Origin: Loxodes magnus
Taxonomy: Eukaryota > Ciliophora > Karyorelictea > Loxodida > Loxodidae
Direction: 5' to 3'
DNA: 64,000 nucleotides
Assembly: GCA_946699065.1 (NCBI GenBank)
Contig: CAMPDV010000057.1
Location: 806,001-870,000, forward strand
Numbering within the stretch: the first letter of the stretch is position 1; every line of letters starts with the position of its first letter. This document shows, piece after piece, positions 656 through 61,819 of this stretch. A program made the translations under genes and the position numbers. The notes below the pieces were generated by a model that was given only the letters and a program-made list of their open reading frames with translations, was not told the DNA's origin and did not search any database.

Positions 656-2218
656 ATGGAAAAAAGAAAAAATGAAGAAACTAATGATTCTGTTTTTAAT
701 TTATCTAAGCAAAATTTGAAAACTCTAGATCTTAATATTCTTAAATAAAACCAAGCTGAAGTTTTGGATATTTCTGTTAACAATTTAACGAAACTCCCGA
801 GTAATCTGTTTTAAACCTTTCCTAACTTAAAGCATATTAATGCTAACACAAATTGCTTGTAGTCTATAGGAGCTGTAGGGAAGATGGAATAAGCTAAAAA
901 ACTGAAAGTATTGTGAATTGAGTAAAATTAAATAGTGGAAGTAAGTGAAGGAGATCTAGCAAACCTAAAATCGCTTTAAGAACTAAAGGCTTCCAGAAAT
1001 AGGATAACTTCTATAACTATGATATTTCAAAAACTATCCTAAAATCTAATAAATTTATGCTTGAATATGAACAAAATTGTTAATATCTAGGGAATTGATA
1101 AATGTATTAGTCTTAAGAATCTGGAGCTCTCGTTTAACTAAATAGTGAGCATTAATGCACTTCCTCCTAGTCTATAGACTTTAGATCTAAGTGGAAATCT
1201 ATTAACAAGTTGCTCTTTCCTTGCAAATAAAGAGAAATTAGAGTTCTTAAACTTAAACCACAATAAGTTCATTAATTTAAAATCAATGCCTTAGCTTCCT
1301 TCACTAGACTATTTAGATGTTTCTGAAAACTAACTGACACTTTTAGGGGTTTGGCTTTAAGATTATCCAAATCTACGTTCACTTAACATATCAAGTAATT
1401 AGCTAGACTCCATGTTTGAAGTCTATTGCTTAATTCCAACTGAAAACTTTGAGGTTTTATTCTGTTTAAACAACCCTTTTAATAAGAATTTTAGCTAAGA
1501 GGAATTTAATAAGCATATCATAGGAAGCTTTGAAGGGCTAAGATAACTTAATGGGGAAAACATAATAAGAGAAACCCCTAAGATGAGAAGACTCAAGTAG
1601 ATGGTGCAAAAGCTAGAAGAGTCAGAAGTTTCTGACCTTGATGAACTGATTGAAAGTCATTAAATAAAGGAGGGAACTATAAATCCTAAGTAACCTCTTA
1701 TAAAAGAAATAGATATGGTTTAAATAGAGCTAGAATTCAATTAAATAAAGAATAAGTTTTAAAGCACTAATTTAAGCATTCATGAAACTTATTAGAGAAA
1801 AGTAAAATTGCTAGAAGAATTAGGGCTAGTTGAGAATGTAGAAGCTTTTTTGAAATAGCTAGAAGAATAGGACTAAGAGATGAAAAATTTAGAAAGCTTA
1901 GAATAAGAAAATGAAGTCAAGGAAGAAGAATATTTATATCCTAGGCCTCCTTAGTTTCCTAAAAGTGCAAATCGACCTCTGACACCTATTTAAGAAACTT
2001 TTGAAGATTAAAATTAAGAAAAATCACGTCCAAGTTCTAGTAGAGGAAGTTAAAAGCGAAAAATCTTTAAGGATATAAAAGAATAAGCTAAAGAGATATA
2101 AAGAGAGTAGAACAGTTAAAATCAAGGAAGATCAACACCTTAGAAGCCAATATCAAAAACAAGAGAGAGAATAGTAAGTGCTTTGGCTTTTAAATTGGAC
2201 CAGGCTTTGAAAAAGTGA
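656..2218 (+). CDS. Leucine-rich repeat protein (SDS22-like)
   Basis: Read with TAR=Q and TGA=W this is 520 residues ending at a TGA. Residues about 25-320 are leucine-rich repeats with the LxxLxLxxNxL spacing (LKVLWIEQNQI, LEFLNLNHNKF, LRSLNISSNQL). They are followed by an LRR-cap-like NPFN...LRQLNGENI segment, as in SDS22/LRRC-type scaffolds. The C-terminal 200 residues are charged and Gln/Glu-rich, probably coiled, ending in a basic Ser/Arg stretch. One in-frame TGA falls in LKVLW, where LRR proteins commonly carry a hydrophobic residue. The ATG follows an A-rich leader and precedes the first LRR closely. LRR proteins of this kind are often ciliary or phosphatase-regulating scaffolds, but nothing here identifies a partner. 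The gene is convergent with the coiled-coil gene, about 100 bases between stops. Confidence 0.85.
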
Positions 2219-2319
2219 ATAATTATTTTAATTGTAATGTTCATTACTTTTATAATTACCTTAACTCAGTATAGTTATTTAAATTAGCATATTCCTTTTA
2301 TTTCAATCTATATTTAAAA

Positions 2320-5514: not shown

Positions 5515-5593
5515 GACAGCGGTGGGATTTGAACCCACGCCCCGAAAGACTAGCGCCTTAAGCTAGCGCCTTAGACCACTCGGCCACACTGTC
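5515..5593 (-). tRNA. tRNA-Leu(AAG)
   Basis: On the minus strand the sequence folds as a cloverleaf. The 7-bp acceptor stem is GACAGTG with CGCTGTC (one wobble pair). The D arm GGCCGAGTGGTC..GG is followed by an anticodon stem CTAGC/GCTAG around the loop TTAAGGC, giving anticodon AAG. There is a short variable arm and a T arm CGTGGGTTCAAATCCCACC. The layout matches eukaryotic tRNA-Leu. There is no intron and no encoded CCA. A TTTTT run directly 3' of the gene (5508-5514 on the plus strand as AAAAAT) is a fitting RNA polymerase III terminator. Confidence 0.96.
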
Positions 5594-5666
5594 TTTAGCT
5601 ATACTTTCAGAAGGAGAATTTGAATTTACTAAGCTATATTAATAACTTAAACTAAAGCTATTAATA

Positions 5667-8114
5667 ATGACAGAAAATTAAGCTGAAGTAAAAGCTGAAC
5701 TTCCCCCAGAAAATTGAGCAAATGACAAAGGGGAAAATATAAAACTCTATGAGAAAATTTTTGAAAGCAAGTCAGAGAAAAAGAAACTGCTAACACTGTT
5801 GCAAAAGACTTACAAAACCTAATATGAAACTAACAAGCTTATTGAATTTGCGAAAAGCATTGAATTTTTTGAGATATTTTCAGAATGAACTTTGGGTATC
5901 TAGGAGTAATTAGTCAATCTTATGAAGCTAGTTAAGCTATAAGATATGGAAATGGTTTATGATAAAGGTGATGAACCTATTGCTTTCTATATTTTACTAA
6001 GTGGAACAATTTCTATTATTGATGAGGTAATCGAAAAGAATAATAGAAAAGGATGGTACCACAATAAAGTCTATGAGATGTAAAAAATTATGCCTGGGTA
6101 GATGTTCGGGCTCGAGAATATTATGGAAAACGAACGAAGAGCTTATGCAGCAAAATGTGAAGGATAGGTAGAAATAATTAGATTTGAAAGAGAAGATTTG
6201 AACAATTTATTAACTCCCACTATGCAATATGCTCATAGGCAGAAAATAAAGTTCCTTAAAGAGCACTTGCCTGTTATAAACAACTTCACTAAATCCATGA
6301 TAGACAAAGTAGCTTACTATTTTAAGTATGTTACTGAAATAAAAGGGAAAATACTAATTGAGTAAAATAAAAATGCAGATATGATAGCTTGAATTAAAGA
6401 AGGCGTTTGCAAAGTAATTAAGATATTGCCAAGCTAAGTAACAAATAAAATCAACACTCACTTTTGTGATATATCAGTAGGATGCTGCTTTGGGTATGAG
6501 TCTATAATTCTAAACTAAAAAATGCCTTATTAAGTTATATCCTAAACTGAAGTAAAGCTAATTGTAATATACTAAGATTAAGCTTTAAACTTACCAAAGC
6601 CAATAATTAAGTTTCTAGAGAGATAGAGTCTAGAAAGAGAAAACTATATTTAGTCTAGGATAACTTCGTTTAAAAAGATAATTAAAGAATCCAAAAAAAG
6701 TAGATTTGATTAGAGCAGATAAAAGTCAGTTAAAGCTATCATTTTAACTGATAACATATTTAAGAAATGCAATAAAGCATCTAACTACTCTTTAAGATGC
6801 TCTTTCGAAAAATAATATCCTGTGTCTAGCGCTTAATCTAGAAACAATAGTCCTGAGTAAAGATCATTCTTAGTAGTAAATAAGAAAGGAGAAAATGAGA
6901 AAAATTCTAAAGAAATAGATATTTTTCTTAATTATAGCCATAGACATACAGGTTTTAATATTTACCTTCCCAAACTAAATTTGGAAAGATTTACTAGGAT
7001 AGAATAAGAAAAGCTAAAAGCAACTTAAGATAAGCAGCATGTTAACTAAATACTTAAATAGAATAAATCAGATCTAGATGATTTCAAAAAACAAAGATTT
7101 AGTAAATTTGCATTAAGCAAAAACGTATTTAATCAGGATATGCAGAAAGCTATTGAATGTAATCAACTTTATTCCTAAATCAGGCAATAAAAAATTAATA
7201 GGAATAACTACATTGAAAACCGTTATGCAGATATGTTGAATTATTAAGAACTACACTTTCTTAGTCTTATTATTTTATCTATAATACTCTTTAAATCCAC
7301 TACTTCAATATTTCCTTTTATACTCTTTCTTTATATAATAAACTAGTATTGAAAACTAGTTTACCTATTACTTTTATTCCGTTTAATAATATTTAAGTTA
7401 TGTGTAAATACTTGCATAATTGATCTAATGCACGATAGTTTATTGTTGTCTAGCTCAATATCGAAGCATGGTAAACAAGGACTTTAAATTTTATATATGA
7501 AAGTATTTATCGAAAAAAATAAATATACTATTTTGTTTATCTTACTAATATTAAACATATTCAATTATTTCTTAACATTCCTAAAGTTACATTTTATACT
7601 ATTCATTATTATTCCTTTTCATTTCATTCACTTGTTAAATTGGATAATAAACCTCTATTCCTAATTTTTAATTTTGAAAGCCAGCACTAATATTCTTTTC
7701 ATTCTAAGTTGTTAAATATTTCAGATATAAAGTACCCTATTACATTGCATAAATTAGTTAAATGAATATACTAATAAAGCACTAGGATAATGTACCTAGA
7801 GAAGCTCTTCTCTTCCATAATTAGTTATGTACACTATAGTAATGATATATCTTTACTTACTCCTAACAATATCCAAAATGGATTATTTCTAATTTAAATT
7901 AATTCTCCTATAAATTAGTAATTTAGATCATATTCTAAGCTTAGTGGTTATTTCCTTTGAAGTCTTGCATCATCACGTCTGCTTATGCTAATACTAAAAT
8001 AGAGTAGAATTTATTAACCTTTTAGTTATTTTAATACCTTAATTGCTATAAACTTATGCCTTTCTATATGTTAAAGGTATTTTATAAGGCTTTATAATAT
8101 AAAGGTAGGATTGA
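5667..8114 (+). CDS. Tandem cyclic nucleotide-binding domain protein with hydrophobic C-terminus
   Basis: Frame opens at ATG 5667 (MTENQAEVKAELPPENW). Residues about 90-195 form a cNMP-binding domain (FYILLSGTISII, then a phosphate-cassette-like FGLENIMENERRAYAA). Residues about 215-305 form a second, more diverged one (MIAWIKEGVCKVIKILPSQ, CFGYESIIL). A charged linker follows to about residue 520. From about residue 523 the frame becomes strongly hydrophobic with several possible membrane spans. The first in-frame TGA after that is at 7350, and the next at 8112. About 250 TGA-free codons lie between them, so I carry the call to 8114; a stop at 7352 (561 residues) is the alternative. The two binding domains resemble a PKA regulatory subunit or soluble cNMP sensors, while the tail suggests membrane attachment. 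No kinase domain or ion-channel filter is seen. The MRH gene starts 25 bases downstream. Confidence 0.7.
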
Positions 8115-8139
8115 AAATCTAATTTTAGTGAAGATAAAA

Positions 8140-8943
8140 ATGTATTTGAAGGTATTTATTTACTAAACGTTTTTCTAATTAGTGTATTGCTCCTCTTGTG
8201 TATTCTAACTTCCTGATAAAACTCAGATTGATCTGACTCCTCTTATGAAATAAAGTCCCCCTGATTATAAGCTTGAACAATTTGAATATACATGATATGC
8301 TAATATTTGCTAATCTACTATCTAAAAATGCTACGGCGATCCTACTGTTATAGCTTCTTAGTGACTTACAGATGGAAATTGTGTGTCAGTGCTTGCTAGA
8401 AATATGAATAGCCAAGCTAATTGAATTGATAATTAATATCCAGAGAAAGGTTTCAAAATAACTCTAACAGGAGGTGACTTTTGCTAGTAGACAGGTAAAG
8501 AAAGAGAGGTTACGTTCATATTTGAATGCGATGTTTAAGCTAAGTAAGTGTAATTTGAATCAGCTTATGAACTAGAAGTATGCAATTATGAGTATTAGTT
8601 TTAAACTATGTATGGATGTGTATCCTAATATCAAACAATTTAAGTTCCAGACTTAATTCCTATACAATCCTCTAAGGATTTAAAGTCTCCTGTAGGGTAT
8701 TCAACCAAAAATATTCTATTCTATGTCCTTTCTAGCTTCATTGCTTACCTTTTAATAGGTGTTTTTCTTAAGAGAAAATAAGGTTAAACACAATGACATG
8801 ATAGCATTCCTAATAAGAATTTCTGAAAGGAATTTCCAGGCTATGTTATAGATGGCTGCTAAGTTTCATATAATTTCACTAAGGAAACTTTTACATATTT
8901 CAGTAGCAGAGCTAAAAGAAGAGAAGGAGAATACTATGTTTGA
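8140..8943 (+). CDS. MRH-domain type I membrane receptor (Atg27/mannose-6-phosphate receptor-like)
   Basis: 267 residues. An N-terminal hydrophobic stretch (residues 2-22) fits a signal peptide. The lumenal part has the spaced cysteines and motifs of the mannose-6-phosphate receptor homology fold: KITLTGGDFCQQTG, VTFIFECD, then CNYEYQFQTMYGC. One membrane span follows (NILFYVLSSFIAYLLIGVFL, about residues 189-208). The short tail carries HDSIPNKNFWKEFPGYVIDG, a typical M6PR/Atg27 juxtamembrane signature. Two TGA codons in this tail read as Trp exactly where the family has Trp, which supports the code. Members of the family sort glycoproteins or membranes in the late secretory pathway. The stop at 8941 is the first TGA after the tail; reading through it gives no family-like sequence. 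Confidence 0.85.
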
Positions 8944-15781: not shown

Positions 15782-18343
15782 TCATTTTATTATTTTCTAC
15801 ATAAAGTCAAAGAATCTTCTTGCATAAATATCTGGAGGCACACAACTTATACCATGTCTATTTGCAAAAAGTCCTTTGAAAAAATGCTCTGCCTTTTTCT
15901 TTGTGCTGCATATTAGAACTTACTTATAAAATGTAAGGATGTCTATTATTCCTATAATGTAGGAGGTTTTTTTTTCTTGGGACCTAAATAAGTAATAGTC
16001 TTCGAAATCTTCGTGAATTTATGTTTAAGGTATTTTTTCTTTTGCTTCTTCTTCAAAGTGAAATCCTAATAGAACACTATAATCTATTATTTAGCATCTA
16101 GCGAAAAACTGAGAGTCGTTTTATAATTAAAGAAGTAGTTTGCTGGCCTTTGGCTCTCCTATATTAATTTATTATTTCATTTCTAAAAAGTCCAAGTCTT
16201 TAAGAGAAATGGTAGGATCATTTCTTTCCTCTTATTTAGTTGTTCTTCCATAGGTACTTCCTTTTAAGTCAAATCTTCTATGAACCTCCATAGACGAAAA
16301 AATATTGTTCATCACTGTAAAATAAATTATCTGTTTTGACTTTCCTGACTAGAAAATCAATTTATGACATCCATAAAATCTAGTGATTAGAGATTAAGGG
16401 TATTACTTCAAGTGATTATGGTAATTAGGCAAAATTCTTATTAGAGTTCTAAACTCTACCTTTGAAATTGTTTTTATGACGTAGTTTCCATCCTCTGAAA
16501 AGAAAAATAAAGACCCTGATTTTCCTGATGATACTTATTAATTAAGAGTACTAATATCACTCATCCATAAAGAACTCTGTATTATAAAAATTACTAGGAC
16601 TTTCTAGCAGCCCAAGCTTTGAATGTACTACTCTGTTATTATTCCACTTAATTGGCGGATTTATTTGAAAATGCTTGGTGCATAATCCTCAAAACTTGAC
16701 ATCTTAGTTTGATACTATTTTTTACTTCCGAATTGTTATGTGATTAAGTCATGTCTGCATTTAAGTTTATAGTGCTAAGGCGTAATCTCTAATTCTGGTT
16801 CATTTTCTACAGATTAAACTGCTTTTTGAATACCTAGCATGATATTAACCATTTTATTCCAATTTTCATCTCCAAAGGTAACTATCTCACCTCCTGTTTA
16901 AACCTTCTTTTTGGACATTTTGAAGGTTTTAATATTTCTAGATCTTTTAGGAACGTTAAGATATTTAGTTTATCTAATCTCTCCTCCTATTTCTTACCTT
17001 TCTTCGTTTATGTCTTATGGTTGAAGCTACTTTATAGTGTTTTCAGCTTAAAGCTGAATGTTTTCTAATCTAACACTTACTTCTCTTATCTTTTCAAACA
17101 TGATAGTCTCATTTAAAATTTTAGAAAGTTGCATTTAAGTGAAGCTGTTTCTTGCAGATTAATTAGCAGTTTTAGAAGCCTAGTCTTTCATTTCCATATT
17201 TTACTAATTTTGATTGAGAATTGCTTCAAAACTATCAACGCTTTATTACCTAGTTATGTTAATCTTGATACTGATAGGACTATCTTCATTATCTATGTCC
17301 AAGCTAAAAATTTTGCGTACTTATTATTCCGAGTTTTAAGTTTCTTTAACATCAATTATTAAATCTAAGATACTTTCATCTAGACATCCTTCCATAATTG
17401 AATCAAAACTGTTTTCTCCAAATTTTTTTGATGGTTAATAGGAACTAATGGAGGGACCTTCTTTGTATAATTTCTAAATAATCTTTTCTTATGCTGGATA
17501 GCTTTCTTCTATTTTTTGCTTTATCTATTGGCCTTACATATTACTTTATCCAGCCATTTTAATCAAAGTTTCTGATTCTTGCTGTATGGAATTTGATAAA
17601 GTTTAGGAGGTAAAAGTTGATAAGTTAGCGAACTAGTTATCTATTAACTCCTTACACTACTATATTTCGTTTAAAAGGTATTTTACTTTTTTAAGCGTCT
17701 TCTAGTTTCCTTGACTATTCACTTGCTCGTTTTATAGTCCCTTGGTAATGATATTCATAAAATCAGTATATTCTGGGTGTTTAATTCAGAACTGTTTAAA
17801 TTCATTTATATCCACGAATCCGTCTTTATTCTAGTCAGCAAGATTAAATAAATAAGCTATTTCCTGCTTCTTCTTTTTGACATCGAATTTAGAGCCTCAG
17901 ATATTAGCAGCCATTGATATTAAAGAAAGCATGAATTATTCAAACTCTTCGTAGTTTATCTTTTTATTTTTATTCTTATCCAGCATTTTGAACTACGCTG
18001 TTGCTTTTTCGTCTTATGTTCCATGATAAAGAACGTCCATAAAACTTAAATACTCCCTAAGACTTACACTTCCTTTATTGTGCTCATCCATTACTTCAAA
18101 CATTCTTTCACCTAAAATCTAAGTAGAAGGCAAACCAAGAAGTCCCATTGAATCCAAGAAAGATTATTTATCCATGCCTTACTTTACTTCATTTTCCATA
18201 TTAAGGTATTTAAACTTCAGCGATTCAAACTCCTAGCGTGAAAATCTCCAGTTTTAAGTCTATTATCATACACTAAACCTAGGGACTGTCTTAGCTCTTT
18301 GCTTTACTTATATTTACTTTTTCTTTTTGCTGCAGCAAGACAT
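15782..18343 (-). CDS. EF-hand (neuronal calcium sensor-like) phosphatidylinositol phosphate kinase fusion
   Basis: One uninterrupted frame of 853 residues. The start is MSCCSKKKK. Residues about 50-210 hold EF-hand loops: a degenerate DEHNKGSVSLRE (from 86), a canonical DKNKNKKINYEE (from 122) and a canonical DQNKDGFVDINE (from 170), spaced as in calcium-sensor proteins. A coiled linker of about 250 residues follows. The C-terminal part is a PIP kinase: SGKSGSLFFFSEDGNYVIKT (catalytic Lys), NNIFSSMEVHRRFDLKGSTY, DYSVLLGFH (written YSVLLGFH after ID), YIIGIIDILTFYK, and the usual end VPPDIYARRFFDFMQKIIK. Such kinases phosphorylate PI4P to PI(4,5)P2 at membranes. The fusion suggests calcium control. 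Three or more TGA codons read as Trp. The N-terminus MSCC has cysteines that could be lipidated, which is inference. Confidence 0.93.
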
Positions 18344-21018: not shown

Positions 21019-21894
21019 TCATTCTAAGTTTAGATGAATGCCAAGTTTGCAGTCACCAACAGTATCAGATGTGAGTTTCGAGGTATTAAGCTCAGAGGCC
21101 ATTATAACCTCAAAGTTTTAAGAGAGTCTTTGCTTAATGGTAGCAGCAACTTTTCCCTGACTGTTTACCTTGGTTTTTATTTCTGTATCTTTATGCCATT
21201 AATAACTACCACCAAATTCAGTCTTCGGAAGACTTCCCCATGGGCATTCTAAGCTAACACCTATTTTAAATTCAGGACTAATTTTCTGATAGTAAGATAA
21301 ATTAACAATTCCAGGTTTTAAAGCATCAGTTGAATGCTTAATAATAAATCTAGAATGCTTCTAAAACCAAAAAAAGGCCAAATTATATGCAGTAATGCTG
21401 GGTTCGATTGTATTATATCCAGTATTCACACCTAAACCAATTCCATTTCTGCCAAAAACTCCACTAAATTTCAGCATTGTCCCATCCTATAACTCTAAGT
21501 TAGTATTCGCGTACTTATGACTATAATCAAGCGATATGGAATTTTGCACTGTAGCTTTTAGCTGATTAGCTTTAATATCTGCCTTAATTTTTAAGTCTTT
21601 TAAATTAAAATCCTTAATACTAGTATCAGGATACACTTCAGCTGATCCTCTGATATCTCCATTACTATTTGTCTTGAAAGATATTTTAGCATCCTTGTGT
21701 GAATAAGTTAAAGCAGCAGAGCCCACAAATTATTTAGCATCAATCTAAGAATTTTTCTTTGCCTTTGTAACTAGATCAAAGTCCTAAGTTTTGTTAGTAA
21801 TTTTAAAGGATAAAAGCTTATTAAAAATATACCCAAGGCTAAGCAAATTTTCTTATTTTTTGCAAAGATTTGAATAAGATTCAAGTTTCTCCAT
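21019..21894 (-). CDS. Mitochondrial porin (VDAC-like)
   Basis: 291 residues, close to the usual 280-290 for VDAC, ending at TGA 21021. After a short N-terminal helix (MEKLESYSNLCKKQENLL) the chain alternates polar and hydrophobic residues as in a 19-strand beta barrel. Strand-like segments include GSAALTYSHKDAKISFKTNS, LKFSGVFGRNGIGLGVNTGY and TEIKTKVNSQGKVAATIKQR. The C-terminus KLTSDTVGDCKLGIHLNLE matches the last two strands of VDAC, where family members end in a KLG.G.. motif. It would form the anion-selective channel of the outer mitochondrial membrane. There is no internal TGA. The start codon lies six bases from the start of the divergent P4-ATPase. Confidence 0.85.
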
Positions 21895-21900
21895 TTAAAA
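21895..21900. promoter_or_regulatory. Six-base gap between divergent start codons
   Basis: The porin ATG (21894-21892, minus) and the ATPase ATG (21901-21903, plus) are separated only by TTAAAA. Either the 5' UTRs overlap, with the promoters lying inside the opposite gene, or one true start is further downstream. The first 100 residues of the ATPase are low-complexity, so a later ATG (for example [10 protein letters not shown] or MKRNNMSK) is possible. Confidence 0.6.
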
Positions 21901-24900
21901 ATGTCTAAAAGTGAGTAGCATTAAGAATTAGGTTAAAGCCCTAATAAGTTGTAGTAAAACAACGAATAGGCAGAACAAAGGCTCTCTTATCAAGCATAGT
22001 AAATGGGAGAGCAGCAACAGGAATTAAGCAACAATTATAATGAGCCAAATTCTACTGATCGATATTATAGTGACTAATTGTAATAAGTTATGAAACGGAA
22101 TAACATGAGCAAGTAAAAGGTTGCATAGCAGAAAGACGTTACCTAGCAGAAAGAGGTTCCATAGTAGAAAGAGATTCCATAGTAGAACGAGATTGAATTA
22201 TAAGTAAGAAGTAAATCTAATAAAGAAGCAGAAGAAAAACAGGTGAATTAAAATAGTGCGGAGTAAGAAAAGTCTGCAAGTTAGAATACACCTAAAATGA
22301 GGACTTTGTGAGTGAATTCTCCTGATTAAAATGCTAAGCGTCAATATATAAACAACTATATAAGCACAACCAAATATACTCTCTACAATTTCCTTCCTAA
22401 GGCTATATTTCTGCAATTCAAGCGTGTTGCAAATGTTTATTTCCTCTGTACAGCTATCCTATAATGTATTCCTGACATATCTCCTCTTAATCCATTTAGT
22501 GCTATATCGCCATTGGTTTTTGTAATAACACTATCAGTTGTTAGAGAAGGAATTGAAGATTACAATCGTTTCAAATCTGATATTAAAATGAATTCTTCAA
22601 AATGTTGCATTTATAAGGAAGGCTAATTTAAGGATAGCCTTAGTCGTGATATAGAAGTAGGTTAACTAGTCATGATTAAGAACGATTAACAATTCCCATG
22701 CGATTTATTATTGCTAGATAGCTCCAATAATAATGGTATAGGATGAGTAGAAACTAGCAGTCTTGATGGAGAAAAAAACCTTAAAAGAAAGGAAGGTTAC
22801 AAAAGAACTATTGGAGTCTTCAGCTAATTCGGATCTAATTTCACTGCTAAAATTAAATTTGAACTCCCTAACACTCAGCTTTACAAATTAAATGCTAACA
22901 TCGACTGGGATGGAAGAAATGACTTACTTAAGAATGATTAGTTTCTTTTGTCTGGAGCTGTTCTGAGAAATACCGAGTGAATTATTGGTGTTGCTTTGTA
23001 TACAGGAGAGGAGACGAGACTAATGAAGAACTAGGAGCCAGCTAAGTTTAAATAAAGCACCATTGAGAAATTGATAAATAACCTTATTATTGCTTTGTTT
23101 TCTTGGCTATTAACTCTTTCTATAATCTCCGGAGTGACAGGAGGTTTATGGGATAATTGGATTGAGGAACATTGGTACATTGATCAAGGCAATGCTCCTC
23201 CTTTTACAGGATTCAAACTTTTTTGGACCTATTATCTACTTCTTAATACTATTATCCCTATCTCTTTAATTGTAACTCTTGAGTTAGCTAAAGTGGGATA
23301 AGCATTTTTTATTCAACAGGATACGCGAATGTATTGTCCTTTGAGAGACAAGCCTGCTAAAGTAAGTACAGCTTCCTTAAATGAGGAGTTAGGCATGGTT
23401 AACTATATATTTTCAGATAAGACAGGAACTTTGACTTAAAACAAAATGGAGTTCAAAAAATGTCTTATTGGAAATCATGTTTACGGAGATATCTCAGACT
23501 TAATTCAGTAGCCTGGTTAAGATCTCCAAAGGAAATAAGAAAACTAGAGTGAGAATGTGGAGGAAGATGATCTTCGAATTCAAAGAGATTACAGAGAAGA
23601 AAATCCTATTCGAAAGCATCACCCAAAAACTGAATATGACATCTAAGAACTGAATTACGAATCTTTAGAAAACATTCAGATCTTTTCAGATGATCACACA
23701 CAAAGTTTAACGTTTAAAAGTTAAAGAGAACTTATTGAGTACTTCTGACTAAGTTTATCTCTTTGTCACGATGTTATTCCAGAAAATGACAAAAAAACAG
23801 GTCTAATTAAAGGATATTCAGGATAAAGTCCAGATGAAGTAGCTCTTGTGATTGCTGCCAAAAAATTTGGATATGAATTCATTAGTTCTAATCAAAGTGA
23901 AATGGTAGTCATTAAGAAAAACAGGAAATTGGGAGGAGCTAATTACCCCTAGTAAGATGATTAAGAAATAAAATTTGAGCTACTCAAAAGATTGGAATTT
24001 ACAAGTGCTAGAAAAAAAGCTTCTGTTATTGTTAGGAGAAAAGATTAGCCAGGTCCTATTTTACTGTTTTGTAAAGGAGCAGATTCTTTCATAACTCCAC
24101 TACTTTCTGGTTTTTCAAGCCATGAAAAATTCCTAGAATTTACTAACGAGTAACTAAGCAACTTTAGTAAAGTTGGATTAAGAACTTTAATGATTACAAT
24201 GAAAATAATGAGTGAAGAAGAATTTAAGAAATTCATGTGAAAGTACGATGAAGCAGAGAAAAATCCTAATGAAGTAGATAAAGAAATTGTTTTAAAAGAA
24301 GCTGAAGGACTAGCAGAGTGCAATCTATTCTAACTAGGAGCAACTGCTATTGAAGATAAATTGTAAGATTTTGTCCCTTAAACAATTAATGATTTGATAA
24401 GAGCAGGAATAAGAGTCTGGATGCTAACTGGAGATAAGCTCGAAACTGCAGAAAACATCGGTAGAAGCTGTAACTTGATTTAAACTGAAAATTTATTGAG
24501 ATCAAGTGCAGATTCTCCAGAGTAAGCTGAAAAAGATGTCAAGAAGTTTAAAAAGTAGTACTTAAAATGGAAAAAGGAATAATAATAGTTCTCAATGCTG
24601 GTAGAGGGATCAGCTTTAACATGGCTTATTTTTGATTTGTATTCAAAAGCTAATAATTCAGTTAAATAACACTAAGAAACTTTATTTAGTGAGAAAGGAC
24701 TAAACTTTGAGGATTGGGTTAATAATTTAACAAAAGACTTTATTGACATTGCTAAATAATGTTAAGCTGTTATTTGTTGCAGAGTTTCTCCTAAATAAAA
24801 AAGAGATGTAGTTACAGCAGTTAAGAGACAAACTCCTGATGCTATTACTCTTAGCATAGGTGATGGAGCTAATGATGTTAGCATGATAAAAGAGGCTCAT

Positions 24901-38347: not shown

Positions 38348-41300
38348 TCAAAAAAAGCCATAAGATTCTTCGTTCTTCTAGTATTTGTGCTTATAAAGAA
38401 TAGCTTGCTCCTTCCAATTTGCTAAATCCTTTTAAAGTTTATTCATCTCTTCTTATAAAGTAGTGAACTATGCTCCTTTCTCTACTATGCTTTGTTCTAG
38501 TTACTTGATATTTGTTTCTCTTTCACTTATATGCTTATTAAGATCGTTTATATTCTCTTGTTTCTGAATGACATAATCTTATAGTTATTTTATTTAATCT
38601 TCTAGAATTTCTTTGTTCTATTGAATAGTTTCTTTTAGTAACCTAATATCAGATAATAGATTAGTCTTTGTATTTTCTAATTCATAAATTCTTTTTTTAC
38701 TTTGATCATTTAATTGTTCTACTTCCTTTATAACTTTCTAATTTTAATCTATATCTTCATTAAGTTATTTAATCTAGACATCATATTTGTTTTTTTCCTC
38801 TATAACTTTTGAGTTTAAAAGTTCGACTTACTTTAGCAAGTTTGAATTTTCTTCTTCCAATTCTTTCTTTTTAATTTCTACTTTTTTAAAAATTTCTTCT
38901 TATTCAGCAAAATATCTTAGCTACTCCTTTTATTAGAGTATCGTTTAAATTTGATTTTCTATTTCTTACTTTTATTTTTCTAACTGTGTTTGTTACTGCT
39001 TTAATTCATTTTTTTGCTATTCTAATAATTGAAATTTTTCTTTTAATTCTTCTTTTTATTGCTCTATTAAGGTGCTTTGCTGCTTGATTTCATTCTATAA
39101 TTAGTCTACAATAAAACTTTTTTCTTTAAAATCTTTTTTTAGCTGCTCTATTTAGATAATTTATTTTTCTATTTCACCCTTTTGTTACTCTATAAATTAG
39201 CATTTATCTTTTTGTTCTTTTTTTTGTTACTCTATTATGCTGTTTTGTTGCTTTATTTCATTCTATAATTAGTCTACAATTAAACTTTTTTCTTTTAAAT
39301 CTTTTTTTAGCTGTTCTATTAAGATAATTTATTGTTCTTTTTCACCCTTTTGTTGTTCTATAAATTAGCATTTATCTTTTAATTCTTCTTTTTGTTGCTC
39401 TATTATCTTATTTAGCTGTATTATTTCGTTCTATAATTAATCTATAATTAAACTTCTTTCTTTCAAATCTTTTTTTAGCTATTCTATTTAGATAATTTAT
39501 TACTCTATTTCACCCTTTTGCTACTCTATAAATTAGCATTTATCTTTTTGTTCTTCTTTTTGTTACTCTATTATGCTTTTTTGTTGCTTTATTTCATTCT
39601 ATAATTAGTCTACAATAAAACTTTTTTCTTTCAAATCTTTTTTTAGCTGTTCTATTAAGATAATTTATTACTCTATTTCGCTCTTTTGTTGTTCTATAAA
39701 TTAACCTTTATCTTTTAATTCTTCTTTTTGTTGCTCTATTATGCTTTTTTGTTGCTTTATTTCATTCTATAATTAGTCTACAATAAAACTTTTTTCTTTT
39801 AAATCTCTTTTTAGCTGTTCTATTTAAATAATTTATTACTCTATTTCGCTCTTTTGTTGTTCTATAAATTAACCTTTATCTTTTTGTTCTTCTTTTTGTT
39901 GCTCTATTATCTTATTTAGCTGTATTATTTCGTTCTATAATTAGTCTACAATAAAACTTCTTTCCTTCAAATCTTTTTTTAGCTATTCTATTTATCTGAA
40001 ATTTTGTTCAATTTCGCTCTTTTATTGTTCTATAAGTTAGCATTTTTATTTTATATCTTCTTTCTGTTACTCGATCTATTCTTTTTACTATTGTAGTTCT
40101 TCTTCCTGTTTTTCTAAAACAGTCTTTAATTATTTTATTTCTTTCTTTAGCTGTTCTTCTAATTCTTTCGACTATCTGAGTGATTCTTCGAGTTATAAAT
40201 TTAAAGATTAAAGTTAAGCGTTGAATTCTTTTTACTTTTCTATTGTTGACTATTATTGATTTATTTCATTCTTACTTTTTTCATTCAAAAGATTAAAATT
40301 TTGGAAATCCTCGTTTTATTGTTCTATCGATATTTTTAATTATTTAATTTCTTCTTATTGTTGCTATTAAGCATTTTGCTATTATTTAATCTATTCTTTC
40401 AACTAGTCGATAGAAAGTTACTTTTACTTAAGTTCTTCTTTTTGCTACTCTATTGAAAGCAGCTTTTACTGTAGTTCCTCTTTTTATTATTCAATTAAGT
40501 ATTTTTATTGCTTTGCTTCCTCTTTTAGTTGTTCTATTACTGATTTTTATTTTTTTATTTCCTCAGTTTACTTTTCTAATAATTCTTACATTTGCTTTGC
40601 TTGCTCCTTTTGCTTTTCTGACGAAGATTATTATTATTTAAGCTCTTCTCTTAACTATTATACCATATCTTTCTATAGTTGAAGTAGTTCTTTTAACTGC
40701 TAATTTGATGAATTAAACTAAGCTATCTCTTCCTTTAGTCTTTCAGATGTATGACGTTGTAATTTCATTTCTTCTTGCTACTAATTCGATATGTTATTAA
40801 GATTCTTTATTTCCTCTTTTAATTTCTCTTATATTACTTATTGATTCTATATCTATTACTCATATTTCGTCTTATTTCGTTGAACCTCTTCATTGTAGAG
40901 TTGAACTTCACTCAATAAATCTTCTCTTTCATTTTCCAGTTCTTATACTTATGCCTACACCTTTTTGAGCTTTTCTTAAATCTCTAACTTCTAAATTTTT
41001 TCCTTTTATAAGTCACTTTCTAATTGCTTAACTTTTCCTTCGCACTGCGATCTTTCTTCTTATAGATTCTCATTTAAAAGTTTAATTTGATTTAATATTT
41101 AATCCTTTTCCTTTTCCATTTCCTAAGAATCCCTTTCAAATTTTTAACTGCTTTCTTAGAGTTCATTTAATGATTTAATTTCTTAGTTCAATTAATCGAT
41201 CTGTATATTAAGTTGCTTTATTTGCTATTCATACCTTCCTTTATTTTATTAGATTTCATCATTCAGCAACTAAATCTCACTCAATAAATCTTCTCTTTCA

Positions 41301-42313
41301 GATTCTAACTCTTTAAGCTTTGACTAAGTTTTTCTATCTTTATCATATAGTTCCGATATCTATTGAGAACTTTCTTTTTAATAGTCTTGCTACATCTTTT
41401 AGAATTGACTTTCGAAGTCAATTTTATCCTTTTATTCTTTTTCGATTAGATCTTTTATTTATTTTTACGAGGCTTAGAGCTATTCTTCAAGTTACTCAAT
41501 GTTTTCCTTATTCTCTTTAATCTGCTGTTCAGATAATTCTATTAAGGATTATTTCTAATTAACGGTATTTTAAAGCTCTTTCTTCTATTTCTAAAACTTG
41601 TCAACTCTTATTTTATAGTCATTGTTTATACGATCCATCTCTAAGATTTGATTCTCTATTTAAGAGAGTTTCTATTCCAGTGTTTCTACTTATTTAGTAA
41701 GCTTTTCTTTTTGGAAGATTAACTAATTATTCTGTAAATTCAGTTCAGTAATAATCTCGTCCTTATCCTATGATAAGTTCTACTCGTATTACAACTGAAA
41801 CTTTTGCATTTGCTTTTCTAATCCTAACAACTTTTCCAATCATAACTTTATGAATAAGGGCTTTTACTTTTCCAGAGCGAATAATTTTTGGCTTTGTAAG
41901 CACTAGTTCTCAGAATCGAGTAATTTTAGTGTATCTTTACTTTGCTCCACCAATTTATTTTGATATTTTTCGATTAGAATAAATCCATTCTGTACAGCTT
42001 CATAACCTGCATGTGTTTACTCATCTAAATCACATTCATCACTTATTTAGGTTAATTTACTAATTATGATATTTTAAATTTCACTTTCAACTTCTAAAGT
42101 AGATGCTATTTTTTTCAGTCAGTTCATTATATTACTAAGGTCTTACAGAATTATTCGTCTTCTCTTCTCAGTTTATACCTTAATTTGTTCAAATTTCTAA
42201 CTAAGTTCTTCTATTTCTTTTGTGCAATCCTTCTATATGCTTAGTCTGGAAAAAGAACTTATTATTTCCTGCTCCTTTATGCTCTTTGTTTAGACACAAT
42301 TTAATTGTCCCAT
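38348..42313 (-). CDS. Giant coiled-coil protein with 56-residue tandem repeats
   Basis: 1,321 residues in one frame from ATG 42313 (MGQLNCVQTKSIKEQEIISS) to TGA 38348. Almost the entire chain is heptad coiled coil rich in Glu, Gln, Lys, Leu and Ile. A less regular head of about 180 residues includes two Trp encoded by TGA (NIMNW, FIKLW). Residues about 760-1085 contain six copies of an exact 56-residue repeat (LKDKCQFIEQQKGEIE in each). Eight heptads per repeat keep the coil in register. The tail ends ILYKHKYQKNEESYGFF. The architecture suits a filament or basal-body/cortex scaffold, or a golgin-like tether. No motor or other enzymatic domain is visible. The second residue is Gly, but followed by QLNC it is only a weak N-myristoylation candidate. 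Confidence 0.88.
39055..40040 (-). repeat. Six tandem 168-bp coding repeats
   Basis: A constant anchor (CATTCTATAA or CGTTCTATAA on the plus strand) recurs at 39091, 39259, 39427, 39595, 39763 and 39931, always 168 bases apart with no length variation. Alternate copies share variants (for example the CTGTATTATTTCG form at 39427 and 39931), suggesting expansion by larger blocks. The unit encodes 56 residues, eight heptads, in the giant coiled-coil gene. Confidence 0.95.
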
Positions 42314-44107
42314 TTATATTAATCAAAACCAAGAAAAATACACTCTTTAATCTAATACCATTACTTCTTTATAAAATCCATTAACACCAAAAAACATAAA
42401 AAGTACCTTTAACCTCTAACATTTGAATCTAACAGAAAATATGAAAGCAGCTTTCATTTAAAGATTTCTTATATTTCCAAAGTGTTTACTCTAAAGACTC
42501 TAACTAATATTGTCAAAGTAATAAAGCCCTTTCTATATAACTATAGTATGAATATTGAGAGACTGACTAAAGATATTTATATGGTTAATAAGTAGATTAA
42601 TATCTTTATAATAAACAATATTGCTTATATTAACATTGGATGATATTTAGTTTTTAATTTACACTACTTTAAGCATTATAATATATATCCTAGGGCTGTG
42701 AGAAAATTGAAACTAAATTTAAGTTTTAAACTCTTATTGAAGAAGAGATAAATAGATACAATAGATAAAAAATAAAGCATGTATTTATTTAGAACTATCT
42801 ATATAGATTTCTTAACTGGATGCTTTCATAATAATAAGGAGATTCCTTTTTAAGACTTTGAAAAAGTGCTTTAATAACTAGACTTTTGATCAAGCTAAAT
42901 AATTAAAGCAAAGAATGCTTTTATAGAAAATCTTTCTTTCTAGATCTGTTATCAAGATAAACATTTGAAATAAGTAGATTTACCTCTAATATTCAACAAT
43001 AAGGCATCTTAAACTTAGAAATATAAAAGAAATCTAAACTATATTATAAGTATATCAAAAGAAGAGAAGCATAATACTTAAGTGATTATTGCTAAGATTC
43101 ATTTCTTTGTACTTGTTTATCTTTTAATTATTGATGTCTATGTGCTTATCTACTGATACTTTATTAATATCTTATAGAATAATATCCTGTACAAATTAAG
43201 AAAACTGACATTCTCTATTTCTTTAATTTATAAATTATCTTTAATCATAAAATTAAAGGATTAGGTATCTCAGCAAGTTAAAAGTTGATGAATTTCTGGA
43301 AAATGTAAAAATATTATCCAGTTAAAAATTGAGTATCTAGCAAGTGAATAAGTTATTAAAGAATAGAGTAAATTAACAGTACTAGTATCTTTATTAGTTA
43401 GGAGATATTACTCTATTTTCTTAATATAAAGATACTCATCAACAAGAATAGCTTCAAACTGCTTTAAAATGAAAACTCTTAATACTTATTTTAATATTAT
43501 TATCTCGGGTATGATAGTATCAGCAACAGCTGAGTAGATTTAAATAAATAAAGATAGATAATAATTATAAAACTAGCTATTTATTTAAAGTCTTTAATTT
43601 TATTAAAATAACCTTTAAAGCAAAAAGAATCAAAAATAGACAAAAATATCCTTTATATTATATTATATTTGAATTAAAAATAATTAAGCTAAATACAAAA
43701 TGCTATTTAGAAGCTAAATATAGAATAAATAAGATAGTAACTTTAATTATTATCTAAAAATTAACCATAAATTTAAAAGCTATATCAAGAGGAATTTAGT
43801 TATAATCATCGATTTTATTATTTCCTTTAATTTATCTAAATAAATAATTATTTGAACTCAATAATCTATAAACATATAATAATACTAAAATAACTAAAAT
43901 AAGCTAAATTTGTTTTAATTTAATGAAGTTATAGATAATAAAATGATATCAATCCAAAAAGATGAAATGATAAATGTTAGTCCTAATAATTTTTAGCTTA
44001 GTTTAGATAAAAAGTTATATAGAATTTAAAATTGAAACTTAGAAGTAGGGAAATATATATATATATGAAGATATTTTAAGGATAAAAATAAAATTTAAAA
44101 TAAGTAG
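42314..44107. other. Noncoding spacer
   Basis: About 1.8 kb, AT-rich, upstream of the giant coiled-coil gene. I see no motif-bearing frame. A short (TA)n-like run (ATATATATATA) lies near 44057. Confidence 0.45.
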
Positions 44108-58100: not shown

Positions 58101-61100
58101 AATTTGAATAGTAAAGAAAATAAAAGAAAGATGTGAAGATAAATAGAAAAAAGAAAGATAAATTTTTAGCATGCAGAACTTATACTATATTTCAATATAC
58201 TTCTATATAATTGCTTTCACTGTCGGCTGCTTTTTCCTTTTTTATAGCTGGAACTTTGGAGATGGAAAATCTTGGAATATCGGAGTAGTGGGGATTTCTA
58301 TCTTATCAATTCCTTTAATTTTCTCCTTGACATTCATTATTAACAGAATTGAGCTGGTCGATCCATAAAAGTCAAGATAAATGATTTAAACTTTTAATTT
58401 TTAAGAAATTAAAATAAAGTTTATTAAGAGAATTAAGTAAATTTTTAGGTATGAAAGTGAAAGCGGAAAAATCTATAAATAGAATAGAGAAACGGATGAA
58501 AAGAAAAGACTAGCCTAAATAATTACCTGTCTTGTCCTAATAATAATAGTACCTGTGATGTATCTAATCATCTAGTAATCGATGGAGCTTGAAACATAAA
58601 TAGAAATCTAGCTCTAGGGGTCTGCAATTATATCTGCTCTAATTGGTCTTACATTTAGTTTTTGCTTATTTTTGAAGTATAGAATGAAGAATTTAGGAAG
58701 ACTTGTATCACAAATATGTTCTTTATACTGCTGACTTGCAATAATAATCCCCTTTGGTATAGTAATCCCTTGCTTTTTTGCTTTCTCTAACGAAGAGCAT
58801 TCAAAAAGTTTACTAAGCTTAGCAATAATAAGTTTTTTCTTAGTAATAATGTTTAGCGTTAGCTTCATTTCTATAGTTCTGAATAGAGCTTTCAATAATA
58901 TCGAAAAGGAAATCAAGATAAAGAAATTTTGCTAGGAACTAGAGATTTTCCTTGTTAAGGACTACGTTTATGTGACAGAATAAATAGCAAGAGGGATATA
59001 TAGTATCTACGAATCTAACGATGAAAAAAAAATGGAAAATTTTGTCGAATCCATGAAATATAAAATTAAATATCTGGATATTCTTTAAAATGACGAACTC
59101 TACAAAAAATGTAAGTCTTTATTTAGTCCGCAAAAGATTTGATTTAGAGAATAAGAAAAAAAATAAGGAAACTGAGAATCAAAACACTAAAACGTAAGAA
59201 GAGAAGAATTGCCTTTTTAAAATTAGGTAATTTTTTAAAGTCAATAAAAAAAACAATGACAACCCAGAAATTTAAAATAACAGAGATTAAAAAGTAGTTG
59301 AAGAGGAAAATAAGCTCAATTAAAGTATCGATTTTCAGTAACACTAGCACTTACTTGATCTTGAAAATTAGGATTATTCTGCTATTAATATAGAGTCTAA
59401 AATTTTAACTGATACAAGGCCTAGTTCGTAGCAGACAGGTAGTTGATAAGTACCACCTCCTCAAATAGTAAATCCTAAGTAAATTGAGAAGTTAAAAGAG
59501 ATGGAGAAAATAGATCTTTATGAAGGACTAGATTCCAAATGGTTAGATTTTAAGACTTATGTTAAAATATGCAAGTAAGACTAACTATTTTAGTACAAGA
59601 CATTGAAATGAACTTAAAATTGATTATGGAAAAAGATAATTTTGATTAGATGCCGTTTTCAAGAAATTTGCTCAAGGAGTTTTAGATGGTGAAGCTTGGC
59701 TACGATAAAAAGACTTTATTTCATTTTGTAGACTGGTAAGTTTATAATTTAATTAGTCAGGCTTGATATAAAAAGAGCATGATAAGAATAGAATGACTAC
59801 AATATATGTAAAGCTAACAGGTAAAGTTTATTAAGAGCAACTGCTTGAATTTAACTTCGATAGAAAAATGTTTCACACTGATTTCTTATTAAATCTTTCA
59901 AGCCAAATGTATCCAGATTAATATTTTGCTATAGCTATACAAAAAATAATAATGGAGGTTATTTATCCATGGCTAATATATAATTTTCCCTAGTTAGCTG
60001 ATGAAAACGAATATCTAAAAGATATAAATTAAGTGGTTGATCCTTCAATAATGCAATATCAAGGATTGTCAGCTTCTTCCTCTGAAATTGTAGAAAATAT
60101 ACCAGTTCCAACATAAGCATAACTCACAAATAAAGGAAGAACTTAAAAACTCACTGACTTTATTATATAAATTGAATAAAAAGAGAAAGAAACTTTAAAA
60201 AAAATTCCAATTAGTTAGCTATCTGATAAAGAAGATGATTATTTTTATAAATTTTTCATAATGGAAGAGCATAAGCAAAAATAAAAGGAAAGTACTGAAA
60301 TAAAATATAAGCAAACTTTAGAGGATAAAGAAAAAGAAAAGTTAGAGTAACAATAGAGAGTAAATTAAAAATCGAATAATAAACAATAAGTAAAATAGAA
60401 GAATTCATCATGCTGATAAATTAACTTTTCTAAAATTAAAGAAAAATATTGGCCTAAATTAAAAAAATTAAATGCTGAAAAAGAAATCGAATCTAATTAA
60501 GACTCTCCTACAAAATGGATTTAAGCTCCAGATATAAATGAAATTAGTCAGAAAATTTTTCATGAAATATAAAAATGAGATTAGACTAATATAGCAGATT
60601 AAAAAAATTTAAAAATGAACTTTAATTTTACTAATATATTGGAAATCTTTTAGCAGGTTGTTTTCTTTTATAGCACATGTGCTTTGGCTTTTTCTAAAGG
60701 AGTTAACTGACCTTATTCAAAAGTTTAAACTTACACAACAAGCGTTTTGCTAGTCGAAATTAGCTATTGGAAATATCTATATTTTACTAGCTGGTGCTCT
60801 GCTTTAATATACTTGTGATTGGCTAAAATTGCATATTAATATGCGAGGTAGGGAAAATTAGGATGAGTAAGATTATTATACAGGATATAATATAAAATAA
60901 AAAAGCAGGATTTCTACATAGATAATTTTGACTTCAACAAGGAGTTAACTTCTTCGGGAATACTATTTATCTATAAATTTTAAAAGTTATGCTAGCCTCC
61001 TGATCTTGCAATTATGAAACTGAACCATCTTAATTATATTAAAGCAGTGATATTCAATGCTTTACAAGCACTCATTTACTTTATGCCAACTTAGGACTTT

Positions 61101-61819
61101 TATGTATTATTATTTATTATCCTGTTGCTACTTTTATGTACCCAAACTTACAGTTTGCCAATAGAGCTTCTGACATGAAATTTCAAACTGACTATATGAT
61201 ATACTAAAGCTCAGGCAAATTAATAATAGCCGGAGTTTCTACTTTTTTCCCATAATAGGATTAATTAGGAATTTAGTTGGTAACTTCAGCCTCTGTTTCT
61301 CTTATAATGATTATAATAAGCTTAATGTGAGAAAATTGCATGGTAAAGTAATTTAACAAATGGATTACTTGTGGATACTTAATTGCCTTTTGGTTTTGTA
61401 TTTGCACAATCTTTAAATGGTATTTTCCAGGAAAAATAAATGATTTATTGCTGCTTATACTTCTATATTTAGTAGGCTTTTGCATATTTATAATAACTCT
61501 AATATTCTGACTGTTTAAAGATATAGAAATACATAAAAAAATCAAAAAATACTGCAAAAAGGGATAAGTCAGTAACAATGAGCAAAGCTAAAATACAAAC
61601 TAGCAGTAAAATGAGAATAAAGATGAACAAAAAAAATAACTAGAAGAAGTAAATTCTTCAAAATTAGATGCCAAAAATATTTCGGAGAATAACGAAGAAT
61701 TTAAAACAGAAGCTTATGATACTGCAGCAAAGAATTCCCCAAAATCCGATAAACATGAAATGAAAATTTAAGATTTAAATGAAGAAGATAAAGAATATGA
61801 AAAGCTAGAGAAAAAATGA
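55194..61819 (+). CDS. Very large polytopic membrane protein with tiny introns
   Basis: Spliced gene of about 2,150 codons from ATG 55194 (MSSIQRNLQGSQYLIKKLIR) to TGA 61817. The N-terminal 550 residues are soluble and helical (ENYQVTIDQMENELENLKNL). A membrane span (WGIIFIMMYILIGIGIDGWI, about 558-580) follows. After intron 1, some fifteen hydrophobic spans occupy 57.2-58.9 kb (YLGICGSFIILAPIFMIGGT, ALGILFLLGPSVYSLLWIGL). A charged cytoplasmic-looking stretch covers 59.0-60.6 kb, with FAQGVLDGEAWLRQKDFISF inside. About six more spans follow (LGLLCIIIYYPVATFMYP, WITCGYLIAFWFCICTIF), then an acidic tail ending YEKLEKK. Frames are restored only by removing short GT-AG introns (listed separately); one more frame change between 60.9 and 61.1 kb is unresolved. 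No transporter or channel signature recognised. Function unknown. Confidence 0.8.
57051..57066 (+). other. 16-nt intron 1 of the large membrane protein gene
   Basis: GTAAGTCATAAAACAG. Its removal joins FYSLIFN to NYSKQNEMMIFVNLMIND in a continuous frame. Without it the downstream membrane-protein frame is lost. Confidence 0.85.
59111..59126 (+). other. 16-nt intron 2 of the large membrane protein gene
   Basis: GTAAGTCTTTATTTAG. Removal joins DELYKK to FRKRFDLENKKKNKETEN. The donor GTAAGT is identical to that of intron 1. Confidence 0.85.
59575..59593 (+). other. 19-nt intron 3
   Basis: GTAAGACTAACTATTTTAG. It contains a CTAAC-type branch-like element. Removal joins YVKIC to NTRHWNELKIDYGKRQFWLD. 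Confidence 0.85.
59736..59756 (+). other. 21-nt intron 4
   Basis: Begins GTAAGTTTATAA and ends TTTAATTAG. Removal joins DFISFCRL to SGLIQKEHDKNRMTTIYVKL. Its length is a multiple of three, and without removal the frame would simply gain seven residues (VSLQFNQ), so this call is less secure than the others. Confidence 0.55.
60657..60699 (+). other. Probable 43-nt intron 5
   Basis: Begins GTTGTTTTC and ends TTTTTCTAAAG. Removal joins TNILEIFQQ to ELTDLIQKFKLTQQAFCQSK in a continuous amphipathic helix. The donor is GTTG rather than GTAAG, and other boundaries are possible. Confidence 0.5.
60867..60883 (+). other. 17-nt intron 6
   Basis: GTAAGATTATTATACAG. Removal joins GRENQDE to IQYKIKKQDFYIDNFDFNKE. 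The GTAAG donor and CAG acceptor match the other small introns. Confidence 0.6.

What the first reader, a model, noticed from the sequence alone, without database searches (positions are those of the whole stretch)
656..61819. All three standard stop codons are sense codons; TGA is both Trp and the only terminator
Seen: TAA/TAG lie at Gln positions in every conserved gene. TGA lies inside genes at conserved Trp sites (P4-ATPase residues about 360 and 1078, kinase WMAPE and DIW, MRH tail NFWKEFP), and TGA also ends VDAC, PIPK, ATPase and the rest. Known: this matches the context-dependent code described for karyorelict ciliates. Inferred: a Loxodes-like source. It explains why standard ORF calling finds nothing here.
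Basis: partly seen in the sequence, partly recalled or inferred. Interest (0 to 1): 0.7.

Follow-up and report, generated by a model that had tools for sequence, protein, structure and literature searches.

The report
Ciliate code without dedicated stop codons
This DNA is read with a genetic code already described for karyorelict ciliates such as Loxodes, in which all three usual stop codons stand for amino acids and one of them, TGA, also ends proteins, so ordinary gene finders see almost nothing here.

Summary
Profile scores over 20 residues pick Trp for TGA, Gln for TAG and, narrowly, Gln for TAA. Copies of a repeated coiled coil exchange TAA/TAG with CAA/CAG. VDAC, PIP5K and PARG end at TGA just past their homology. 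TAA is missing from the last 20 codons before the stop in seven homology-supported genes (0 seen, 5.8 expected), TAG is not (3 seen, 2.5 expected); that pattern is reported for Loxodes magnus (PMC11441545, section 9). Four candidate introns are 16-19 nt, the Loxodes size class. Best reading: nuclear DNA of a Loxodes-like karyorelict using NCBI table 27, with UGA ending translation near the poly(A) tail. Not shown here: decoding tRNAs, eRF1, poly(A) sites, 18S; the own-genome search did not complete. 'Only terminator' is well supported, not proven.

The parts
656..2218 (+). LRR protein; sense TGA at 914, TGA end 2216
   Evidence: Pfam LRR_4 8.2e-23
5670..7352 (+). cNMP-binding (PKA-R-like) protein, 5' end not determined; sense TGA 5715, 5886, 6390; TGA end 7350
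   Evidence: PF00027 2.1e-18; PKA RII alignment
8401..8943 (+). ATG27/MRH-type membrane protein, 5' end not determined; sense TGA 8422, 8794, 8824 (NFWKEFP); TGA end 8941
   Evidence: PF09451 1.6e-10
15782..18202 (-). EF-hand + PIP5K lipid kinase, 5' end approximate; sense TGA 17899, 17788; stop TGA 15784, three codons after the PIP5K profile end
   Evidence: PF01504 3.3e-73, profile 5-288 of 288 at residues 684-937, TGA at residue 940
15906..15923 (-). candidate 18-nt intron (GTAAGT...GCAG); its length equals the six-residue insertion relative to PI5P4K2C; holds one apparent 'Gln' TAA (15922)
16577..16594 (-). candidate 18-nt intron (GTAAT...ACAG) in the PIP5K gene, inside a longer insertion relative to PIP5K1A
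   Evidence: read by eye
21019..21894 (-). VDAC; stop TGA 21021; no TAA/TAG in the last 32 codons
   Evidence: PF01459 7.9e-29, profile 4-265 of 271
21901..25944 (+). P4-ATPase, one open frame from ATG; 9 sense TGA (22309, 22744, 22978, 23746, 24238, 25132, 25192, 25405, 25480), TGA end 25942
   Evidence: PF16212 9.8e-69
36053..37351 (+). PARG; sense TGA 36227, 36887, 37007, 37184; stop TGA 37349
   Evidence: PF05028 9.5e-66; PARG structure alignment
38348..42400 (-). coiled-coil protein with internal repeats used for the synonymous-exchange test; 5' end not determined; TGA end 38350
62589..62897 (+). Dynamin_N match with in-frame TGA 62820
   Evidence: PF00350 9.7e-12
63452..64000 (-). C-terminal part of a protein kinase cut by the window end; TGA at WMAPE (63948) and DIW (63897); two frame changes not resolved
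   Evidence: PF07714 0.00055, below its cut-off
59111..59126 (+). candidate 16-nt intron GTAAG...TAG
   Evidence: frame switch
59575..59593 (+). candidate 19-nt intron GTAAG...TAG
   Evidence: frame change read by eye; motif list

Best explanation
The window is nuclear DNA of a karyorelict ciliate, probably Loxodes or a near relative, read with NCBI table 27. UAA and UAG are glutamine. UGA is tryptophan when far from the mRNA's 3' end and a stop when close to it. [quoted passage not shown] near the short 3'UTR and poly(A) tail eRF1 wins at UGA. Shown here: sense meanings of the three codons, TGA at gene ends, loss of TAA just before the stop. Inferred from the literature: the tRNAs, eRF1 and poly(A) proximity. 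Inferred from code, introns and the pre-stop pattern: the organism.
For: Pfam score over 20 residues: TGA=W 236.9 bits in the P4 C domain, next F 229.5; TAG=Q 214.1 in PARG_cat_C, next K 210.8; TAA=Q 261.1 in PIP5K, next E 259.5. With both TAR codons changed, Q beats E and K in P4 (summed bits 426.8 / 423.1 / 423.5) and PARG (278.8 / 266.1 / 266.8). Repeat exchange: TAG mismatches 10 of 10 with CAG, CAA or TAA; TAA 9 of 15 with CAA or TAG; Gln makes 51 of 113 mismatches synonymous, next best residue 39. TGA marks the coding drop-off in 10 of 39 cases, TAA 20 of 448, TAG 12 of 212 (P = 3e-5 and 4e-4). VDAC, PIP5K and PARG end at TGA with no TAA/TAG between the end of homology and the TGA (for PARG counted from the end of the structure alignment at residue 470, since a TAA lies between the Pfam end and that point). 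TAA in the last 20 codons of 7 genes: 0 vs 5.81 expected, P = 0.0026; TAG 3 vs 2.52. Over 13 ends: TAA 3 vs 13.4, P = 0.0006; TAG 4 vs 6.0; CAA 6 vs 5.9. Candidate introns of 16, 18, 18 and 19 nt.
Against: By BLOSUM voting on a few homologues TGA (n = 7) came out F, then Y, then W, and TAG (n = 16) came out D. Porin_3 scores E 103.1 and K 102.7 above Q 101.3; PARG_cat_N prefers R at TAG (58.7 vs 56.5). In P4 the Hydrolase and E1-E2 domains alone score E or K slightly above Q. Two ORFs without homologues (2485-3975 and 12702-13591, minus) lose coding signal about 105-165 nt before the next in-frame TGA and pass TAA/TAG on the way. The coding model was seeded with TGA-free ORFs, which favours TGA as an end. 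No tRNA other than Leu(AAG), no eRF1 and no 18S in hand.
Confidence: 0.88

Rival explanations
1. Condylostoma-type code (table 28, number recalled): TAA and TAG also end genes, so TGA is only one of three terminators; a heterotrich source.
For: Same sense meanings (PMC4967479 passages). In P4, MRH, cNMP and LRR an upstream TAA/TAG could be the stop as far as homology shows. Two ORFs fade before the next TGA.
Against: VDAC, PIP5K and PARG leave no room for a TAA/TAG stop past their homology. TAA/TAG show no excess at coding drop-offs over CAA/CAG (P 0.33 and 0.59). TAG is not depleted before the TGA, unlike C. magnum, where all three codons decline. About 95% of heterotrich introns are 15 nt and the rest 16 (PMC11441545, section 9); candidates here reach 18-19.
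Confidence: 0.06
2. A non-ciliate with a convergent code, such as the dinoflagellate Amoebophrya ex Karlodinium veneficum or an undescribed lineage.
For: That Amoebophrya probably reads TAR as Gln and TGA as Trp (PMC12005148 passages). No 18S here.
Against: [quoted passage not shown] here all 7 homology-supported genes do and TAR makes 75% of Gln. The TAA-not-TAG depletion and 16-19-nt intron candidates fit Loxodes.
Confidence: 0.04
3. A Blastocrithidia-like code, TAR = Glu (table 31, number recalled).
For: PIP5K prefers Q over E by only 1.6 bits and Porin_3 prefers E by 1.8.
Against: Summed over P4, PARG, Porin_3 and PIP5K, Q leads E by about 16 bits; repeat copies exchange TAA/TAG with CAA/CAG and in none of 25 such mismatches with GAA/GAG; Blastocrithidia uses UAA as its stop (PMC12153298 passages).
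Confidence: 0.01
4. Pseudogenes or chance open frames.
For: AT-rich DNA; the kinase at 63452-64000 changes frame twice.
Against: A 1347-codon P4-ATPase without frame break and with conserved motifs, and codon-specific substitution patterns in repeats.
Confidence: 0.01

Closest known systems
Karyorelict nuclear code, NCBI table 27 (Seah et al. 2022, not held; Loxodes magnus genome, PMC11441545)
   Same: UAA/UAG = Gln (from PMC6935857 passages for Loxodes), UGA = Trp and the only stop; UAA depleted and UAG not depleted before the stop; introns mean 19.3, mode 17 nt, few under 16
   Different: Nothing tested differs. Sense TGA is 0.53% of codons in 7 genes here; the figure for L. magnus was not seen
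Parduczia sp., an unclassified karyorelict (PMC4967479, passages)
   Same: Same assignments; UGA scarce just before stops
   Different: Sense UGA 0.120% of codons there, about four times less than in the 7 genes here; before stops only UGA decline is reported, here TAA is depleted
Condylostoma magnum code (PMC4967479, passages)
   Same: All three codons are sense; context-dependent stop
   Different: There TAA and TAG also terminate; no clear sign of that here
Blastocrithidia code (PMC12153298, passages)
   Same: UGA = Trp, all stops reassigned, one dual codon
   Different: UAR = Glu and UAA is the stop there
Amoebophrya ex Karlodinium veneficum (PMC12005148, passages)
   Same: UAR probably Gln, UGA probably Trp, 4-bp-stem tRNA-Trp
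   Different: About half of the genes without in-frame stops; terminator codons not determined

Membership tests
Karyorelict code (table 27) | UAA = Gln | tested here: met
   Best of 20 in PIP5K, by 1.6 bits; repeat exchange 9 of 15; 11 of 56 aligned cells Gln against 3.8% background
Karyorelict code (table 27) | UAG = Gln | tested here: met
   Best of 20 in PARG_cat_C; repeat exchange 10 of 10; alignment vote alone did not give Gln
Karyorelict code (table 27) | UGA = Trp inside genes | tested here: met
   Best of 20 in the P4 C domain; best of 7 residues tested in PARG; alignment vote alone gave Phe
Karyorelict code (table 27) | UGA ends genes | tested here: met
   VDAC, PIP5K and PARG ends; drop-off test
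Karyorelict code (table 27) | UAA and UAG are not terminators | tested here: inconclusive
   No excess at drop-offs and three homology-defined TGA ends; two ORFs ambiguous
Karyorelict code (table 27) | UAA and UGA depleted before the stop, UAG not (as reported for L. magnus) | tested here: met
   Last 20 codons, 7 genes: TAA 0 vs 5.81, TAG 3 vs 2.52. The UGA part, 0 vs 0.77, is too few to judge
Karyorelict code (table 27) | Stop set by nearness to the poly(A) tail | not testable with these tools
   No transcripts
Karyorelict code (table 27) | Gln tRNAs for UAA/UAG, 4-bp-stem tRNA-Trp, eRF1 | not testable with these tools
   Only tRNA-Leu in the window; own-genome search did not complete
Loxodes as source | Introns 16 nt or longer, mean 19 | tested here: met
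   Four candidates of 16, 18, 18, 19 nt; no RNA evidence; motif scan only mildly enriched
Loxodes as source | Karyorelict 18S rRNA | not testable with these tools
   None in the window
Condylostoma code | UAA and UAG also serve as stops | tested here: not met
   No excess at drop-offs; TAG not depleted; not excluded for single genes
Blastocrithidia code | UAR = Glu | tested here: not met

The most novel reading that the evidence does not exclude
The DNA comes from a lineage outside the karyorelicts that reached the same fully ambiguous code on its own, including the avoidance of UAA but not UAG before the UGA stop.
Probability: 0.05. Interest if true: 0.6.

Novelty: already known. Interest (0 to 1): 0.22.

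Why it matters
It shows that one 64-kb piece of raw DNA suffices to recover a published, extreme genetic code, including the fine point that UAA but not UAG is avoided before the stop. In practice such DNA must be annotated with table 27 and with very short introns in mind; reading it with the standard code gives one ATG ORF of 100 aa or more. The UAA avoidance, in a code where UAA does not seem to terminate, suggests that UAA still carries some termination risk near the 3' end, but that was already seen in Loxodes magnus.

Tried and rejected
BLOSUM voting on a few PDB homologues was too weak for TGA (n = 7: F, Y, W) and TAG (n = 16: D), though right for 44 of 48 control sense codons; part of PIPK was counted against two homologues there. 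Replaced by profile scoring. VDAC with stops masked found no PDB chain at E 0.001. PARG was first scanned in a wrong frame and gave nothing, then found. Close relatives of the P4-ATPase: no pattern match in viral contigs; 16 pattern matches but no relative confirmed by tblastn in bacterial/archaeal genomes. The motif scan for introns of 16-25 nt shows a mild excess (54 vs 36.4, sd 8.2), so the intron claim rests on the four cases named. For the kinase frame changes no plausible intron up to 40 nt was found; one search lists two of fitting length for the second change, both misplaced. For the pre-stop depletion I quote the 20-codon window of the paper; a 24-codon window (0 vs 7.0, P = 0.0008) was also run and fits the nearest TAA at 25 codons. 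TTA is also low in the last 20 codons (1 vs 3.9, P = 0.09). The six extra gene ends were chosen by me from ORFs whose coding signal ends near a TGA; the two ambiguous ORFs and other weak ORFs were left out; those six alone give TAA 3 vs 7.8 (P = 0.04) and TAG 1 vs 3.6 (P = 0.13). A looser repeat comparison gave TAA 17 of 27 and TAG 11 of 11 mismatches within the Gln set. The last part of the script stopped on an assertion and was rerun. Seah et al. 2022 is not held.

Full report
What was checked. The window is 64,000 bases at 26% G+C. The standard code gives a single ATG ORF of 100 aa or more; reading only TGA as stop gives 23 of 300 aa or more, against a mean of 8 in 20 shuffles. A self-trained three-periodic model marked coding stretches; it was seeded with long TGA-free ORFs, so it is not neutral about TGA. 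Pfam scans of chosen stretches (30 frames in three calls, not the whole six-frame translation) with TAA=Q, TAG=Q, TGA=W found LRR repeats, a cNMP-binding protein, an EF-hand/PIP5K lipid kinase, VDAC and a P4-ATPase, an ATG27/MRH protein, and PARG, dynamin_N and a kinase match below its cut-off.

Sense meanings. I masked every TAA, TAG and TGA as X and aligned to solved structures (VDAC gave no match). Conserved sites come out as expected: TAA at the Gln of DKTGTLTQN in the P4-ATPase and a TAA/TAG at the Gln of the PARG QEE motif; TGA at Trp 360 (chain 6k7g), 1078 (7vgh, 'ATPase IC'), 1169 (6lkn, 'ATPase IG') and 1194 (7vgh and 6lkn), and at WMAPE of the kinase (E 0.48). Not all columns agree: of 16 TGA columns tallied by eye, 5 face Trp in at least one printed homologue and 10 an aromatic residue; PARG's four face Lys, Glu, Phe and Ile. 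The TGG control is 5 of 12 Trp. Voting by BLOSUM62 gave Gln for TAA (n = 56) but Asp for TAG (n = 16) and Phe for TGA (n = 7), with 44 of 48 control codons right, so I turned to full profiles.

Profile test. Each codon was given each of the 20 residues. TGA in the P4 C domain (4 sites): W 236.9 bits, F 229.5, M 228.1, all others lower, X 224.8. TAG in PARG_cat_C (5 sites): Q 214.1, K 210.8, N 209.4, E 209.3, others lower; PARG_cat_N alone prefers R (58.7) to Q (56.5), the sum prefers Q. TAA in PIP5K (13 sites, one of them in a candidate intron): Q 261.1, E 259.5, N 258.0, others lower. With TAA and TAG changed together, Q beats E and K in the sum over the P4-ATPase domains and in PARG, and loses slightly in VDAC. 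TGA in PARG_cat_C, seven residues tested: W 221.8, Y 219.4, F 218.2, others lower.

A test without outside homologues. The coiled-coil protein at 38348-41839 (minus) holds repeats of 28 and 56 codons. Between aligned copies (440 codon pairs, 113 mismatches) TAG is exchanged with CAG 6 times, CAA 3, TAA 1 and nothing else; TAA with CAA 8 times, TTA 5, TAG 1, AAA 1. Calling both Gln makes 51 mismatches synonymous; the next best residue (Leu) gives 39 and the others 34-35. The pairs are not independent, but the direction is clear.

Termination. VDAC (TGA 21021), PIP5K (15784) and PARG (37349) end at TGA a little past the end of their homology, with no TAA/TAG between (for PARG the end of homology is that of the structure alignment, residue 470 of 484). 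TGA coincides with loss of coding signal in 10 of 39 cases, TAA in 20 of 448, TAG in 12 of 212, the last two not different from CAA and CAG. The nearest sense TGA to a stop in the seven homology-supported genes is 39 codons away (MRH), the next 55 (PARG). TAA is absent from the last 20 codons of all seven (0 of 140 codons, 5.81 expected, P = 0.0026), while TAG is present as expected (3 vs 2.52) and sense TGA is too rare to judge (0 vs 0.77). Adding six gene ends that I chose without firm homology (13 in all): TAA 3 vs 13.4, TAG 4 vs 6.0, sense TGA 0 vs 0.96, CAA 6 vs 5.9. PMC11441545 (section 9, read in full) reports this for Loxodes magnus: UGA and UAA depleted for about 20 codons before the stop, UAG not. 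For Parduczia the passages seen name UGA only, for C. magnum all three (PMC4967479). Against: two ORFs without homologues fade before the next TGA and pass TAA/TAG; an intron or a TAA stop cannot be told apart.

Introns. The PIP5K gene has an 18-nt stretch GTAAGT...GCAG at 15923-15906 that accounts for a six-residue insertion relative to PI5P4K2C (7qpn); without it the reading frame goes on and the length agrees. A second 18-nt candidate lies at 16594-16577. Candidates of 16 nt (59111) and 19 nt (59575) fit frame changes. L. magnus introns have mean 19.3, mode 17, few under 16 nt; heterotrichs have 15-16 nt (PMC11441545, section 9).

Mechanism and literature. Passages of PMC4967479 give the model: translation is the default and the transcript end overrides it. 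[quoted passage not shown] PMC6935857 (passages) gives UAR = Gln and UGA stop for Loxodes transcriptomes. PMC12005148 (passages) and PMC12153298 (passages) supply the non-ciliate parallels. None of tRNA-Gln, tRNA-Trp, eRF1, poly(A) site or 18S could be examined here.

Verdict. The code is already described; the window adds a small confirming case. Sense TGA makes 0.53% of codons and 43% of Trp codons in the seven genes, more than the 0.120% of codons given for Parduczia, from a small sample.

Noticed in passing
63452-64000 (-): The kinase C-terminal part changes frame twice (near 63885 and between about 63835 and 63810) with no plausible intron up to 40 nt; pseudogene, assembly indel, longer intron or frameshifting cannot be told apart.
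   Followed up: partly
   Followed up: yes
29718-32078 (-): A 786-residue predicted protein with a long Ser/Asp/Glu repeat tract, no Pfam match at E 0.01 and no in-frame TGA before its end.
   Followed up: no
38348-42400 (-): Gln-rich coiled-coil protein with 28/56-codon repeats; 148 TAA/TAG codons in its 1163-codon TGA-free stretch.
   Followed up: partly
15906-15923 (-): An in-frame 18-nt intron candidate that holds a TAA: in this code such an intron, if retained, would not be seen as a premature stop.
   Followed up: no
seven homology-supported genes: TGA supplies 22 of 51 Trp codons (43%), below the A-ending share of six other codon pairs (66-83%), and 0.53% of all codons, more than the 0.120% reported for Parduczia.
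   Followed up: partly
2320-4044 (-) and 12595-13600 (-): Two ORFs without homologues whose coding signal ends about 105-165 nt before the next in-frame TGA; possible introns or TAA stops.
   Followed up: partly
5514-5593 (-): tRNA-Leu(AAG), the only RNA gene found in the window.
   Followed up: no
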